Below are positions 58,102-64,000 of a stretch of 64,000 nucleotides of DNA, one piece after another; the first letter of the stretch is position 1; each line of letters starts with the position of its first letter. The DNA lies in NCBI RefSeq assembly GCF_004365705.1, contig NZ_SOBN01000001.1, forward strand, positions 3,892,001 to 3,956,000, read 5' to 3'. The DNA comes from Streptomyces sp. 846.5. Its GTDB lineage: Bacteria; Actinomycetota; Actinomycetes; Streptomycetales; Streptomycetaceae. Under the pieces are notes generated by a model. That model was given only the letters and a program-made list of their open reading frames with translations, was not told the DNA's origin and made no database searches. Position numbers and translations under genes: made by a program.

Positions 58102-58396
58102 ATCCGTACCTCTCTGCACAGCAGCCCCCGGTCGCCATCGGCCGGCATCACTGCTCGGAGGCGACTCTACTCCCAATTTCGTCACTCTGACGATAATTGT
58201 TGATGGTCCCTCCGGCCAAGCCCGGTCTGCCTCCGATCCCCGCTCCCTACAACGCTGTTGGTCCCCCGAATCGAGCCGATACGGGGGCCCCGGCGGCCTG
58301 CCCCAGCGACTGGGGAAGCCCCGCTGACCGGCCGGACCATGGCCGATGCTGGTCTTCGCGGCGCCGGTCCCGGGGCTGACACGGGCGGAGGCGGCT

Positions 58397-58847
58397 ATGG
58401 GGCGCAACAGGGTGTGGGTGCAGGTCGAGGGTGAGCGGCGGGTGCGGGCCGACCGGATCCATGAGGTCGGGGCCGGCGGCCCGGGGCAGCTGGAGATCTG
58501 GGCCACCGGTCACCGCGACCCGCTGGGCGCGGACCTGGTCCCCGGCGCCGATGCCGAGCAGTCCGGGGAGTGGGGCCGCGAGATGCTGTCGCTGATCGCG
58601 GCCCACTCGGAGCGGCGCGGGGAGACGCTGCTGCGGTTCGATCCGGGCGGGGACGGCGTGCTGCCGCACTGGGCTGTCTACGACTGCCGCACCCGCCAGC
58701 GGCTGAACACACCGCCCGGTGGACCACGCGATGCTGCGGGCGCTGGACCCGTCGAACCCCTCGGACGCGGACCGGATCATGGCCGTCACCGACCGGTTCC
58801 GGCGCGAGAGCCAGGCCCGGCAGCGGGGACTTCCGCCCGGAGCTTGA
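58397..58847 (+). pseudogene. Frameshifted hypothetical gene
   Basis: From ATG 58397 (GGAGGC) the protein runs as GRNRVWVQVEGERRVRADRI to RTRQRLNT. Then coding quality switches frame near 58715 and continues VDHAMLRALDPSNPSDADRI to a stop at 58847. Unknown family. One-base indel assumed. Confidence 0.5.
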
Positions 58848-58849
58848 CC

Positions 58850-59234
58850 CCGCTCCCCCGCCCCGGTCAACGTCTCGGGCCGGTGCTCCGATGCGCGCCC
58901 TGCTGCGGTTGCTGCTGCTGGTTGCCCGGACGGCGGCCGCCGCTGACCGGCGCCGCCGAAGGCGCACTCTCCGCTCCCGGGACGCCGGGGACGTCCAGGC
59001 GCCGCTGCCCGGCCGGGCGGCCATCCGGCGCAGGAAGTCCTGCATCCGGCGCTCCGAGGGGTCCGTCCGCTCGCGCAGCTCGCGCTCGCAGAGCAGGTCC
59101 GCCAACCTGCGCAAGACGGAGAGGTCGGCAGCGCCCCTGTCGAGGTCCGCGGCCAAGGCTGCGGACTCGGCAGCTGGGTCAGCGTCAAGGTCCCCCAACC
59201 GGCCGGGGACATCCTCCAGGCCGATGCCCAGCAT
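58850..59234 (-). pseudogene. Protein-like remnant abutting the IS6 fragment
   Basis: From ATG 59234, SAALAADLDRGAADLSVLRR and ADLLCERELRERTDPSERRM look coding, then quality fades by about 58900. Probably the start of a gene cut during IS insertion; family unknown. Confidence 0.35.
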
Positions 59235-59722
59235 TCCCGGACGAGGTCTTCATCAAGGTCAACGACGAGCAGAAGTACCTGTGGCGGGCCGTGGACGCCG
59301 ACAGCGACGTCCTCGACATCCTCGTGCAGAGCCGCCGGGACACCGCCGCGGCCAGGCGTTTCTTCCGGAAACTGCTCAAGGGCGCCGGGGCTGTGCACCG
59401 GGTGGTGGTCACCGACAAGCTCCGCTCCTACGGCGCCGCGCACCGCGAGGTGATGCCGTCGGTCGAGCACCGATCGCACAAGGGACGGAACAACCGGGCC
59501 GAGAACTCCCACCAGCCGACGAGGCAGCGCGAACGCGCCATGAAGGGCTTCCGCTCCGTCGGCGCCGCCCAACGGCTCCTGGCCGCGTTCAGCGGCATCT
59601 CACCCCACTTCCGCCCCCGACGCCACCTGCGCACCGCCGCCGACCACCGCCTCGAAATGACCATCCGCTTCACCCTCTGGAACCAGATCACCGGCACCAC
59701 CGGTCTGCCCACCGCAGTCTGA
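59234..59722 (+). pseudogene. Truncated IS6-family transposase
   Basis: About 162 codons with the IS6/IS26 DDE core: DEVFIKVNDEQKYLWRAVDA (first Asp), VHRVVVTDKLRSYGAAHREV (second Asp) and NNRAENSHQPTRQRERAMKG (Glu). The N-terminal DNA-binding 70 residues and left end are missing, so it is inactive. The cut at 59234 joins directly to unrelated DNA. Confidence 0.85.
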
Positions 59723-60389: not shown

Positions 60390-60601
60390 GGGTCCTACTC
60401 TCCCAGCACCTTGGCCACCGCCCGCAGCCCGGTGCGCCCGTGCCTGGCCAGCGTCGTGGCCGAGCGCGAAGCGTTCGGCGAACTCGACCTCGGCGAACGC
60501 GAGCTGGACCCCGCGCTGTGCCTGCGGCATCTGAACGCGATCGTCTCGCCCCACCCCTACGACCTGGAGGCAGTGGCCCCCGTCGCGGAGTTCGACCTGA
60601 G
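60390..60601 (+). pseudogene. 5' fragment of a Mrr-like restriction endonuclease gene
   Basis: In-frame sequence EREAFGELDLGERELDPALC, LRHLNAIVSPHPYDLEAVAP, VAEFDL matches the middle of actinobacterial Mrr-type (restriction endonuclease) proteins and ends exactly where the IS110 element starts. The N-terminal half of the family is missing upstream. Continues at 62248. Confidence 0.75.
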
Positions 60602-60689
60602 TCATTCAGCGGCCCTTCGGGCCTCGCGGTGGGACGGGAAAATCGGGGGCGTCGTCGGCGTTTGTGCCCCTGCCACGCACGGGGAACGG

Positions 60690-60850
60690 GAGCATGGTTG
60701 TCGTCCGTTCCGGATGACTCCGGATCTACTCTGGTGCCTGTGAGCCCGCACCTGAGTCTGGTGGCGGAGGGCGGCCACGGGAACCGTGGATTGTTGCCAC
60801 GAGCACGAGCGTCAGATTGCATGCTGACCCCAGCCCTCCCCGGAGCGGTG
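60690..60850 (+). ncRNA. Candidate bridge RNA in the IS110 leader
   Basis: The leader folds into several stem-loops (CCGGA-TGAC-TCCGG at 60710-60723; GGTGC..GCACC; GTCAG..CTGAC). ACCTGAG at 60750-60756 equals the left target flank plus AG core (60595-60601), and GCGTCAG at 60809-60815 equals the right end of the element plus core (62243-62249). These are the expected left-target and left-donor guides, in the IS621 order (target loop before donor loop). Right-side guides are weak by eye. Limits approximate. Confidence 0.55.
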
Positions 60851-60888
60851 TCCGACCGACTGCCGAGGCAACCCCGGAGGGGTGGGAG

Positions 60889-62136
60889 ATGGACGTCGTC
60901 CACGAGCGCGTCGCCGCGCTGGACGTCAGCAAGAAGGACGCCAAGGTGTGCGTCCGGGTCCCCGGCGCGCGCAAGGGGACCTTCGCCAGGGAGGTGACCA
61001 CCTGGGGGTCGATGACCGGCCAGGTCCTCGAACTGCGTGAGTTCCTCCTGGACAAGAACGTGACGCTGGTCGTCATGGAGGCGACCGGCGACTACTGGAA
61101 GCAGTTCTACTACCTTCTGGAGGACGCACTGCCAGTGCAGTTGGTCAACGCGGCCCACGCGAAGAACCTGCCCGGCCGCAAGAGCGACGTGAACGACGCC
61201 CAGTGGCTGGCTCAACTCGCAGCCCACGGGCTGCTGCGCGGCTCACTGGTGCCGCCGCCACCCGTGCGTGAACTGCGCGACCTGACCCGCCTGCGCTCCA
61301 AGCTGACCAACGACCGCTCCAAGGAGCACCAGCGGCTGGAGAAGCTCCTGGAGGACGCGGGCGTCAAACTGTCCGTGGTGGCCACCGACATCCTCGGCGT
61401 CTCCGGTCGGCTCATGCTCGGGGCCCTGTGTGCGGGCACGGCCGGCCCCGAGGCGATGGCCGAGCTGGCCAAGGGCCGCATGCGCTCGAAGATCCCCGAG
61501 CTGCGCGAGGCCCTGACCGGCCGCTTCACCAGCCACCACGCCTTCCTGACCCGCCTGCACCTGCAAGTAATCGACGGCTTCGATGCGGCCATCGCCGAAC
61601 TGGAGGCACGGATCGAGGTGGTGATGGAGCCCTTTCGCCCCCTGATCGACCTCCTGCTGACCATGCCCGGTATCGGCGAGAAGACCGCGCAGGTGATGGT
61701 CGCCGAGGCCGGTGCGGTCATCGACTGCTTCCCCAGCGCCGCATGCTTCGCGTCCTGGGCCGGACTCGCCCCCGGCTCCAACCAGTCAGGGCCGAAGACC
61801 AAACCCGCCAGGACCAGACATGGCAACACCTACCTCAAGGGCGCCCTCGGCATCGCAGCGCTGTCCGTCTCCCGCTCCCGCGGCACGTTCCTCAGCGCCC
61901 GCTATCACCGCATAGCCACCCGCCGAGGCCCGATGAGAGCCCTGGTCGCCACCGAGCACTCCATGGCCACGGCGATGTGGCACATGCTCACCCAGGGCGT
62001 GCCCTACCTCGAACTCGGCGGCGACTACTACACCCGCCGCGAGCCCGAACGCGCCAAGGCCCGCATCACCGCCCAGGCAGAGGCCCTCGGGCTCGCCGTC
62101 ACCTTCAGCCCCATCGAGCCCGACACCGCCGCCTGA
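60889..62136 (+). CDS. IS110-family transposase (DEDD/Ser recombinase)
   Basis: 415 residues from ATG 60889 behind GGAGG. N-terminal RuvC-like DEDD domain: VAALDVSKKDAKVCV (Asp), LVVMEATGDYWKQF (Glu), NLPGRKSDVNDAQWLAQLAA (Asp pair). A coiled middle follows, then the Tnp domain LLTMPGIGEKTAQVMVAEAG and the catalytic Ser region CFASWAGLAPGSNQSGPKTK. These enzymes use a bridge RNA to pair donor and target. The frame is intact, so it may be active. Confidence 0.93.
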   Translation: MDVVHERVAALDVSKKDAKVCVRVPGARKGTFAREVTTWGSMTGQVLELREFLLDKNVTLVVMEATGDYWKQFYYLLEDALPVQLVNAAHAKNLPGRKSDVNDAQWLAQLAAHGLLRGSLVPPPPVRELRDLTRLRSKLTNDRSKEHQRLEKLLEDAGVKLSVVATDILGVSGRLMLGALCAGTAGPEAMAELAKGRMRSKIPELREALTGRFTSHHAFLTRLHLQVIDGFDAAIAELEARIEVVMEPFRPLIDLLLTMPGIGEKTAQVMVAEAGAVIDCFPSAACFASWAGLAPGSNQSGPKTKPARTRHGNTYLKGALGIAALSVSRSRGTFLSARYHRIATRRGPMRALVATEHSMATAMWHMLTQGVPYLELGGDYYTRREPERAKARITAQAEALGLAVTFSPIEPDTAA

Positions 62137-62247
62137 CAACGCCCACAGTGCACCATTTGCGCAGGCCGGCCGCCACCGGTTCCCGAAGCATGTCAACAAG
62201 GCACCGCCGCACCTTCCGTCTGCCGGGCTGACCGTGATTTTCGCGTC

Positions 62248-62729
62248 AGCAAGTACCGCTTCGTGGAGGAGGTCGACATCGTCTCCGGCCTCGACAGCCG
62301 CCCGGACCTGGTGAAGATGGACCCGTACGCGTTCGAGCACCTGGTCCGCCAGCTCTTCGAGGCCGTCGGGCTGGAGGCCTGGACCACCCAGGCCAGCCGC
62401 GGCGACGGCGTCGACGCCGTCGCGATCAACCGCGACCCCCTGACCCCGGGGGCCTGTGCGTCATCCAGGCCAAACGCTACAAAGACGCCGTACCGGCCGA
62501 CGCCGTCCGAGCACTGGCCGGCGTCATGACCGACAAGGCCGCGGCCAAGGGCATCCTGGTCACCGCCTGTTACGGCAAATCCAGCCTCGACTTCACCCAA
62601 CGCACCGGACGCATGCAACTCATCGAAGGACGCGGCCTCAAAGCCCTCCTCAAAGAACACCTCGGCATCGACGCCATCATCGGCCTACCCAAAATCCCCC
62701 GCGGCTGGCACCCTCAAGACATCCAATAG
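62248..62729 (+). pseudogene. 3' fragment of the Mrr-like restriction endonuclease gene (frameshifted)
   Basis: Continues the fragment at 60601: SKYRFVEEVDIVSGLDSRPD, DPYAFEHLVRQLFEAVGLEA, DGVDAVAINRDPLTPG. In the G/C run near 62443-62452 one base is lost and the frame shifts: CVIQAKRYKDAVPADAVRAL, GRMQLIEGRGLKALLKEHLG, to TAG 62727. Asp in DGVDA and Q-A-K are the PD-(D/E)xK catalytic residues, now in different frames. So the gene is broken by both IS and frameshift. Confidence 0.82.
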
Positions 62730-62999: not shown

Positions 63000-64000
63000 A
63001 CACGAAGAGGAGCTGCATGTAGGAGAGCTTCGCGAAGTGATGCTGTGCGGAAGATGAAGGATTCTGGCCCTTCGGAGTCGCCCTGCGGGGGGAGGCTTCA
63101 AACCGCCTCATGCTGCATTGGCTGAAGACCGTTGTGGTGAACGATGAGGAAAAGGCGTCGTAAGAGGCGTCAGGTAGGGATCGGGAAGACGAACGCGAGT
63201 GAATCGTTGCTGAAGTGTCGAAAGAGTTGAGACGACATCAAAACCGAGGTGTGCCAACAGCTTCGGGATGAGCCTGGCGGGTGCCCGTCTATTGGCCAGG
63301 CGGTGTCCGGCATGCAGACGACGTGAGCCCGATCTGCCGCTTTCGCATGGAACAGGAGAAGGCGTGCCCCGATACTGTCCGCCCTGGTAGGGGCGGGCGA
63401 CAGGGAGTGTCCCCGGCGGTGGAAGCCGCGAGGGATCGAGTACCGGCGCGGGGCGCGCTGGCGGACCGGCCCGTAGTAGTGACGAAGCTCCTGTAATGGG
63501 GGCGGAGCGAAGGGGCCGGGCTATTCGTGACGTTGTGTATCCGGACAACCGGACGTTCTCCGGGAGGAACTTGATGGACACGTTGAAGTCACCGGCCAAG
63601 CCGTTCGATATCTCGAAGCGGGAGGTCTGGGAGGCATACGAGGGAGTGAAAGCGAATCAAGGTGCGCCGGGAGTGGACGGGCAGTCCATCGACGAGTTCG
63701 AGAAGGATCTGAAGAACAACCTGTACAGGATCTGGAACAGAATGTCGTCGGGGACGTACTTCCCGCCGCCAGTGCGTGCGGTCGAGATCGCCAAGTCCTC
63801 GCCGGGAGGCGGGGTGAGGATCTTGGGCGTGCCCACGGTGGCCGACCGGATCGCCCAGCCGTGGTAGCCAGGCACCTCACGAACCGGGTCGAGCCCGTGT
63901 TCCATGAGGACTCGTACGGCTACCGCCCCGGGCGGTCGGCACTGGACGCGGTGGAGCTCTGCCGGCAACGCTGCTGGAGCAAGGACTGGGTGATTGAGCT
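63000..64000 (+). mobile_element. Group II intron (5' part; continues beyond window)
   Basis: About 570 bp of structured, poorly coding, relatively AT-rich leader (intron RNA domains) precede a group II reverse transcriptase frame. A GTGCG at 63045-63049 could be the 5' splice boundary, but this is uncertain. The 3' end lies outside. Confidence 0.7.
63574..64000 (+). pseudogene. ltrA: Group II intron reverse transcriptase/maturase, frameshifted and partial
   Basis: Starts at ATG 63574 (GGGAGGAA upstream): KREVWEAYEGVKANQGAPGV, DGQSIDEFEKDLKNNLYRIW, then GGGVRILGVPTVADRIAQ. In frame a stop follows at 63865-63867, whereas the family sequence continues one base later: TVVARHLTNRVEPVFHEDSY, GYRPGRSALDAVELCRQRCW. 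One missing base near 63857 explains it. As seen, the maturase is truncated, unless this is a sequencing error. The active-site YADD lies beyond the window. Confidence 0.85.

What the first reader, a model, noticed from the sequence alone, without database searches (positions are those of the whole stretch)
60595..62249. IS110 element whose leader contains guide-like matches to both recombination junctions (bridge RNA)
The leader upstream of the transposase carries ACCTGAG, equal to the left target flank plus the AG core, and 53 nt later GCGTCAG, equal to the element's right end plus the same core. That is the order and content expected of left-target and left-donor guides in an IS621-type bridge RNA. 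The uninterrupted restriction-gene frame gives the pre-insertion target, so donor and target are both known here. Each 7-mer could match by chance (roughly 2% each in 287 bp), so this is suggestive, not proof. The right guides are weak by eye.
Basis: partly seen in the sequence, partly recalled or inferred. Interest (0 to 1): 0.85.

Follow-up and report, generated by a model that had tools for sequence, protein, structure and literature searches.

The report
Mirror-order bridge RNA of an IS110
A jumping gene in a soil-type bacterium carries, just before its recombinase gene, a predicted RNA whose short guide stretches match the element's own end and the places where it has landed, but with the two target guides in the opposite order to the best-studied relative.

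Summary
Element: 60602-62247 (1,646 bp), core AG on each side. Ten copies lie in this genome; all ten left flanks read TTCNNCCTG|AG. Across relatives, an unbiased scan maps left-target positions -5..-1 onto consecutive RNA columns: 88-91% match versus 25-40% for permuted pairs. The donor guide has an exact copy beside the right end in 23 of 30 guide types, versus 20 of 870 mismatched pairs. A covariance model built without this element finds 60700-60850 at 127 bits; the next hit scores 11.

The RNA is not IS621-like in layout. The right-target guide (CTACT, 60726-60730) lies 5' of the left-target guide (0 of 5,000 permutations as good). IS621 and ISEc21 have the reverse order; IS1111 elements have this order, but with the RNA downstream of the transposase gene. 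No right-donor guide was found. Four copies sit in the end of an IS630-like element. Verdict: very probably a real bridge RNA, and a new architectural variant of a known system. Transcription and activity are untested.

The parts
60602..62247 (+). IS110-family element, 1646 bp (copy 1 of 10 in the genome)
   Evidence: 10 copies at different sites: right boundary by divergence after AG; left boundary because CCTG|AG, shared by all copies, is also in unoccupied homologues up to CCTGA
60600..60601 (.). left core dinucleotide AG
   Evidence: AG flanks the element on both sides in all 10 copies
62248..62249 (.). right core dinucleotide AG
   Evidence: as above
60591..60599 (+). left target, TTCGACCTG (positions -9 to -1)
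   Evidence: TTCNNCCTG in 10 of 10 copies; unoccupied allele with the same left target in L219
62250..62254 (+). right target, CAAGT (+1 to +5); over the 10 copies +1 is T in 6, +2 is A or G in 9, +3 is G in 7
62243..62247 (+). left donor GCGTC (right end of the element)
   Evidence: with core AG identical to guide 60809-60815; same relation in 23 of 30 guide types, one element per type
60602..60606 (+). right donor TCATT (left end of the element); no RNA guide detected for it
   Evidence: diagonal scan without a leader
60638..60644 (+). short subterminal inverted repeat, left copy GAAAATC, 36 nt inside the core
   Evidence: reverse complement of the 62236 repeat; spacing 36 in the three families of this genome
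62236..62242 (+). short subterminal inverted repeat, right copy GATTTTC, 5 nt from the core
   Evidence: among relatives the right copy varies (ATTTTC, ATCTTC, ATTTAC, GATTTC) and its reverse complement is found in the left end in most
60700..60850 (+). bridge RNA core (model match)
   Evidence: held-out covariance model R1: 127 bits, E 1.2e-25, next hit in window 11.3 bits; G-U 162 versus A-C 25 among paired cells supports the + strand
60704..60713 (+). closing stem P1, 5' arm (pairs with 60840-60849)
   Evidence: 7 of 10 pairs with changes on both sides, 82% of cells paired
60840..60849 (+). closing stem P1, 3' arm
60724..60730 (+). right-target guide ATCTACT; CTACT at 60726-60730 is the reverse complement of AGTAG
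   Evidence: RT +1..+3 match 57/53/51% versus 33/29/31% in permutations, 0 of 5000 for the sum over +1..+5, 47 guide types; RT diagonal 7.5, next unrelated one 4.0
60732..60748 (+). target-loop inner hairpin (60732-60737 with 60744-60748, bulged T)
   Evidence: 99.4% of cells paired, 4 of 5 pairs with changes on both sides
60750..60756 (+). left-target guide ACCTGAG
   Evidence: LT -5..-1 match 88-91% versus 25-40%, 27 guide types; top diagonal 17.2 versus next 3.3
60766..60772 (+). donor-loop outer stem, 5' arm (pairs with 60833-60839)
   Evidence: 5 of 7 pairs with changes on both sides, 95% of cells paired
60833..60839 (+). donor-loop outer stem, 3' arm
60775..60789 (+). hairpin CCACGGGAACCGTGG at the place where a first donor guide would be expected
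   Evidence: 70% of cells paired over all 35 rows; sequence much the same in most close relatives
60792..60807 (+). donor-loop inner hairpin, same form as 60732-60748
   Evidence: 99.4% of cells paired, but 3 of its 5 pairs never vary
60809..60815 (+). left-donor guide GCGTCAG
   Evidence: exact copy beside own right end in 23 of 30 guide types versus 20 of 870 cross pairs; 96 of 119 elements versus 54 of 3451
60889..62136 (+). IS110-family transposase, 415 aa; motif positions D12, E64, D100, D103, S300
   Evidence: Pfam DEDD_Tnp_IS110 and Transposase_20; NCBIfam transpos_IS110 255 bits, cut-off 140; motif positions; PDB relatives IS621 and ISCro4

Best explanation
The leader of this IS110 element encodes a bridge RNA (about 60700-60850, + strand) that works with the 415-aa recombinase. 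A target loop carries, in the order 5' to 3', a right-target guide (CTACT, read as reverse complement of AG+RT), an inner hairpin and a left-target guide (ACCTGAG, read as LT+AG). A donor loop carries one clear guide, GCGTCAG (LD+AG), in the place that corresponds to the left-target guide. Recombination exchanges strands at the AG core between the circular element and the target. Shown by sequence here: element ends, target preference, covariation of three guides with their DNA, RNA structure and strand. Inferred: transcription, binding by the recombinase, circular intermediate, strand exchange as in IS621. In core terms the RNA keeps the IS621 order (the guide ending in CU first, the guide ending in AG second), but left and right of the element are swapped. 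I therefore infer that the strand cleaved first is the one opposite to the transposase-coding strand. The right donor side would then be recognised by the protein or the subterminal repeat, or by pairing too short to see here.
For: 10 of 10 same-genome copies have CCTG|AG at the left, and RT is biased to T-(A/G)-G. Two further families in the same genome have other guides that fit their ends and flanks: 7 copies with GGTTC|AG...AG|GCG and guides CGGTTCAG and CGCCT, and 2 copies with GGACCAG at their own end. Unbiased scan and permutation tests for LT and RT. Donor guide 23 of 30 types versus 20 of 870. Core covariation: L064, L065 and L092 have core AA, LT guide ending AA, LD guide GTAGGAA and RT guide ending TT. 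Structure covariation: 124 both-side-changed cells versus 41.4 in shuffles, 0 of 500 reached. Held-out model hit 127 bits; in the whole genome its 19 strong hits are the 10+2+7 copies. Unoccupied homologues of the host gene exist.
Against: No RNA or recombination data. The RT guide is weaker than the LT guide: in the single-column scan the best RT hit lay elsewhere (+7, column 183, z 3.6; the guide columns had z 2.3-2.6), 9 of 104 elements could not be framed, and 10 of 90 guide-target entries have at most 1 of 5 matches even with G-U, although 43 of 90 have at least 4 (13% in cross pairs). No right-donor guide found. TTC at -9..-7 is fixed in 10 of 10 copies and I see no RNA segment that explains it. 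26 of 123 elements with enough 3' DNA lack the exact donor 7-mer: 4 are the nested copies, and of the rest several look truncated and some differ by one or two bases. In the L013 family the sequences that I call target are shared by all 7 copies and no unoccupied site was compared, so there target and element are told apart only by the repeat spacing and by other families. The nearest unoccupied allele has AC, not AG, at the core.
Confidence: 0.92

Rival explanations
1. A canonical IS621-type bridge RNA: left-target guide first, right-target guide 3' of it in the same loop, four guides in all.
For: Family membership; target loop precedes donor loop; left guides present.
Against: The RT diagonal lies 5' of the LT guide (columns 75-77 versus 99-103), and no diagonal of comparable score lies 3' of it. 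The RD scan finds no leading diagonal.
Confidence: 0.04
2. The matches are chance: short 7-mers in a GC-rich leader, with target preference set by the protein alone.
For: Each 7-mer alone has about 2% chance; single-sequence folding is little better than shuffles; TTC at -9..-7 shows that something other than the guide also matters.
Against: Guides covary with DNA partners across families, with 0 of 5000 permutations as good; structure covariation; held-out model.
Confidence: 0.01
3. The leader is a regulatory 5' UTR (attenuator or ribosome-binding control) whose guide-like parts are a by-product of end duplication.
For: It lies directly upstream of the transposase start and could also affect its expression.
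Against: Does not predict the host target sequences, which are outside the element; left targets differ between families and follow the guide.
Confidence: 0.03

Closest known systems
IS621 bridge RNA and recombinase (PMC11208160 passages; PMC11208158 passages and section 7)
   Same: DEDD/Tnp recombinase, RNA in the left end on the coding strand, target loop before donor loop, pseudo-symmetric loops with inner hairpins, core included in guides, first guide ends CU and second AG
   Different: There LTG comes before RTG and LDG before RDG, core CT on the coding strand, four guides; here RTG comes before LTG, core AG on the coding strand, one donor guide found; recombinase 415 aa instead of 328 aa in the PDB chain
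ISEc21 seekRNA (PMC11187229, section 12 read)
   Same: IS110-type element with upstream non-coding RNA; target lies in another IS
   Different: Bottom-strand match precedes top-strand match there; order reversed here; transposase cluster of 345-385 aa there (section 6)
IS1111-group seekRNAs such as ISEc11, ISPa11, ISKpn4 (PMC11187229, abstract and passages)
   Same: Top-strand complement precedes bottom-strand match, as here
   Different: Their RNA lies downstream of the transposase gene; longer subterminal repeats; transposases of 330-350 aa (section 6)
ISArsp3 (Arthrobacter; annotation name in plasmid records)
   Same: 57.9% identical transposase; same RNA scaffold, donor guide ATGTCAG matches its right end, LTG TAAGTGAG matches the left flank AAGTGAG (by eye)
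   Different: Different guides; no paper naming it was among the listings

Membership tests
IS110 family | DEDD RuvC-like domain plus Transposase_20 domain with G..P....SG motif | tested here: met
   G..P....SG motif from PMC11187229 section 6
IS110 family | No terminal inverted repeats; dinucleotide core at both ends | tested here: met
   core AG at both ends of 10 copies; no inverted repeat between the two ends among the 25 longest of 73 listed; 7-nt subterminal repeat GATTTTC/GAAAATC present
IS110 group (not IS1111) | Long non-coding region and RNA upstream of the transposase | tested here: met
   287 nt left end with RNA, 111 nt right end
IS621-type bridge RNA | Loops complementary to target and donor | tested here: met
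IS621-type bridge RNA | LTG 5' of RTG in the target loop | tested here: not met
   RTG columns 75-77, LTG columns 99-103
IS621-type bridge RNA | Both a left and a right donor guide | tested here: inconclusive
   left donor guide present; no leading right-donor diagonal, but RD varies little among close relatives so power is low
IS621-type bridge RNA | RNA expressed and bound by the recombinase | not testable with these tools
   needs RNA sequencing
[quoted passage not shown]
   the joined junction was not scanned
IS1111 group | RNA downstream of transposase and subterminal repeats of 7-17 bp | tested here: not met
   RNA is upstream; a 7-nt repeat exists, 36 nt from one core and 5 nt from the other
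IS1111 group | Top-strand complement precedes bottom-strand match | tested here: met
   definition from PMC11187229 (abstract, passages)

The most novel reading that the evidence does not exclude
The long-transposase IS110 subgroup to which this element belongs (and plausibly IS110 itself) uses a mirrored, three-guide bridge RNA. The RNA sits where IS621's does, but its target guides are in the order of IS1111 elements, and the donor is read by RNA on one side only. It would be a third architecture between the two known groups, in Actinomycetota and, on single elements read by eye, also in Bacillota and Pseudomonadota, and it predicts that the opposite strand is cleaved first relative to the transposase gene.
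Probability: 0.6. Interest if true: 0.72.

Novelty: new variant of a known kind. Interest (0 to 1): 0.62.

Why it matters
Bridge recombinases are being developed for programmable DNA rearrangement. The members with structures or assays that I came across are IS621 and its close orthologues, ISCro4 (PDB), ISEc21 and some IS1111 elements; I met none from the long-transposase subgroup. This family has short natural guides whose left-target rule can be read from sequence, and it occurs in actinomycetes, where insertion tools are useful. The swapped guide order makes a concrete question testable: is the polarity of cleavage fixed by the RNA or by the orientation of the element? The element also shows natural targeting of another transposon's end (an IS630-like end, 4 of 10 copies), and a nested composite that lies at four sites.

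Tried and rejected
Rfam has no bridge-RNA model that matches (only a group II intron nearby). Single-sequence folding was uninformative and put the guides in stems. I considered GGATGACT (60712-60719) as a right-donor guide because it pairs with AGTCATTC with one wobble; rejected, since the relatives' sequences at that place do not follow their own right donor (alignment, by eye; scan). I considered TTGCT/GTTGCC in the donor loop as a right-donor guide; it hardly varies while RD does. I looked by eye for a pairing explanation of TTC at -9..-7 of the left target and found none. First automatic boundary finding with a fixed ATTTTC/GAAAAT motif missed many families, so the right end was then located by the donor guide; the column scan for LD is therefore circular and is not used. 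My first donor count (25 of 30) was uneven: it let any element of a type count and used longer DNA for own pairs than for cross pairs. The even recount is 23 of 30 versus 20 of 870, and only that is used. In one search two elements (L041, L081) have probably mis-called left boundaries; they were kept as misses. Caballeronia relatives match the donor guide but not clearly the target guides. No protein structure prediction was made.
Full report
What was checked. The finding places an IS110 element at 60595-62249 whose leader holds ACCTGAG and GCGTCAG. Both strings are present, at 60750-60756 and 60809-60815. The transposase (60889-62136, 415 aa) matches Pfam DEDD_Tnp_IS110 and Transposase_20 and NCBIfam transpos_IS110 at 255 bits against a cut-off of 140. 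The only two solved relatives found by sequence are IS621 (E 4.6e-10) and ISCro4 (E 2.5e-9). The motif residues D12, E64, D100, D103 and S300 are in place (the role of the corresponding IS621 residues is from PMC11208158, passages).

Copies in the same genome. A whole-genome search finds 10 near-identical copies: six of 1646 bp and four of 3079 bp that carry a nested IS110-family element. All ten left flanks read TTCNNCCTG|AG; four of them share one sequence, so there are seven distinct left flanks. That CCTG belongs to the target and not to the element is shown by unoccupied homologues. Position -5 equals the guide base A in 5 of 10. On the right, +1 is T in 6 of 10, +2 is A or G in 9 of 10, and +3 is G in 7 of 10. 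The four copies that share a left flank lie at the right end of an IS630-like element (HTH_33 and DDE_3 domains in L005; NCBIfam IS630 85.7 bits, below its cut-off of 100, from the second of two reading frames). The flank was found four times in the genome, each time next to this element. Three of the four continue with TA, the dinucleotide that IS630 elements duplicate (recalled, not tested).

Other families. The same genome has two related families: L011/L012 (2 copies) and L013-L019 (7 copies). In both, the leader carries their own right end in the same frame (GGACCAG, GAATCAG). In the 7-copy family all copies have GGTTC|AG on the left with guide CGGTTCAG, and AG|GCG on the right with guide CGCCT; since all 7 share these, copy comparison alone does not prove that they are target. 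CGCCT lies 5' of the left guide, and the window has CTACT at the same place. That was the first sign of the swapped order.

Covariation. From the loci I pooled 163 distinct elements. 152 have a recognisable donor-loop frame and 11 do not; 123 had at least 250 nt of 3' DNA, and 97 of these 123 hold the exact donor 7-mer. The 26 misses are the four nested copies and 22 others, several apparently truncated and some with a difference of one or two bases. In an even test without the nested copies, 23 of 30 guide types (one element each) have their own guide in 260 nt at their 3' end, against 20 of 870 cross-type pairs; over all elements, 96 of 119 against 54 of 3451. Left boundaries were set by the subterminal repeat and the core, without use of the target guide, for 83 of 104 elements. 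A scan of 238 RNA columns then puts LT -5..-1 on columns 99-103 in order, as its five best hits (z 4.6-8.1), and RT +3..+1 on columns 75-77 (z 2.3-2.6; the single best RT hit was elsewhere, +7 on column 183, z 3.6) (its LD part is circular and is not used). Summed over three positions, the LT diagonal scores 17.2 with 3.3 as the next, RT 7.5 and 6.2 on adjacent columns with 4.0 as the next, and RD has no leader (4.2 three times). Permutation tests on guide types: LT (81 of 83 elements, 27 types) 88-91% match per position against 25-40%, observed sum 4.51, best of 5000 permutations 2.52. RT (95 of 104 elements, 47 types) 57/53/51/37/36% against 33/29/31/26/24%, 0 of 5000 for the sum; 43 of 90 guide-target entries have at least 4 of 5 matches with G-U allowed, against 13% of cross pairs, and 10 of 90 have at most one, against 26%. 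Relatedness between families is not fully removed by collapsing to guide types. Three elements with core AA (L064, L065, L092) have guides ending AA, AA and TT, so the core itself covaries in all three guides; their left boundary is uncertain by one base.

Structure. A 35-sequence alignment supports six helices that I named by eye: 88.1% of cells paired against 79.5% in shuffles, 124 cells changed on both sides against 41.4, 0 of 500 shuffles as high; slid controls fall to 34-52% paired. RNAalifold recovers three of the six on its own. Inner hairpins of the target and donor loops have the same form, as IS621's loops are pseudo-symmetric (PMC11208158 section 7). All three guides lie in unpaired columns. 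G-U outnumbers A-C 162 to 25, or 93 to 25 without the two near-invariant U-G pairs, which favours the coding strand. A model built from 30 sequences without this element finds the window leader at 60700-60850 with 127 bits, E 1.2e-25; the next hit in 64 kb has 11.3 bits. In the whole genome (150 of 8530 first-look candidates scored) it gives 20 hits at E up to 0.01: 19 are the 10+2+7 known copies, and one of 34 bits lies beside a partial relative.

Wider relatives. In plasmid records the transposase has relatives in Bacillota and Pseudomonadota (137 records, 60 listed). I fetched 15 of the 60 listed and read five elements outside Actinomycetota by eye. The donor 7-mer is exact at the right end in all five (Paenibacillus AGGGTAG, two Alicyclobacillus AGGATAG and ACGGTAG, Variovorax ATCCTAG, Caballeronia TTACCAG). 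The left target agrees with the guide in four of five (5 to 8 nt with the core; not clearly in Caballeronia). The right guide 5' of it agrees well in Paenibacillus (TAAACT with AGTTTA), partly in Variovorax and one Alicyclobacillus (two bases beyond the core), and poorly in the other Alicyclobacillus and in Caballeronia.

Comparison with what is known. In IS621, LTG is nucleotides 50-58 and RTG 77-80 (PMC11208158). In ISEc21 the bottom-strand match precedes the top-strand match, while IS1111 elements have the reverse (PMC11187229, abstract, passages and section 12). The same paper notes that transposases of the IS110-containing subgroup are 395-455 aa, and that those of the IS621 and ISEc21 groups are shorter (section 6); the window's is 415 aa. 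The window family thus combines the upstream location of IS110-type elements with the guide order of IS1111. PMC11208160 predicts bridge RNAs in 85.7% of IS110s and shows ISAar29 among six examples (passages). I could not see that figure, so the order may already be drawn there. In the listings (open-licence PMC only), and in the parts of five papers that I read, I saw no report of an upstream RNA with this order.

Mechanism, shown and inferred. Shown: ends, core, target preference, three guides, structure, strand. Inferred: the RNA is made, bound and used as in IS621; the guide ending in CU plays the part of IS621's LTG although it reads the right target here; cleavage polarity relative to the gene is inverted. 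Open: how the right donor and the TTC at -9..-7 are read. The nearest unoccupied homologue of the host gene has AC at the core (L219, 97% identical over 272 nt), L222 and L226 have AG, so the ancestral core at this site is uncertain.

Host. A genome labelled same family (G017) has a contig of the same length, and a match at the same start coordinate, as a Streptantibioticus cattleyicolor megaplasmid, so the family is probably Streptomycetaceae.

Noticed in passing
window 63056-63175 (+): Group II intron domain match (RF01999, 98.6 bits), with a reading frame from 63496 to 63867 that has no Pfam hit.
   Followed up: no
window 62263-62526 (+): Mrr-type restriction endonuclease fragment interrupted by this IS; the gene also appears to change frame after about 62440. 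Unoccupied homologues exist in relatives.
   Followed up: partly
L024:2824-4098 (-) and the same insert in copies 7, 9 and 10: A 1433-bp IS110-family element nested just before the transposase stop in 4 of 10 copies; the 3079-bp composite is at four different sites, so it has probably moved as a unit.
   Followed up: partly
L005, about 335-1506: IS630-like element whose right end is the target of 4 of 10 copies; all four places with that end found in the genome are occupied.
   Followed up: partly
window 60591-60593 and the same place in nine other copies: TTC at -9..-7 of the left target is fixed in 10 of 10 copies and is not explained by the guide.
   Followed up: partly
window 60690: The window copy has G where copies 2 to 6 have C (element position 89); copies 7 to 10 also first differ from the window copy there; outside the RNA model.
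   Followed up: no
window 58346-59719 (+): Reading frame with a DDE_Tnp_IS240 domain just upstream.
   Followed up: no
L028, L029 and L032, left flanks: Rhodococcus relatives whose left flanks read ATTTTCGTGGGAG, ATTTTCGTGTCAG and ATTTTCGTATCAG, i.e. look like right ends of related IS110 elements: apparent tandem insertion or IS-end targeting.
   Followed up: no
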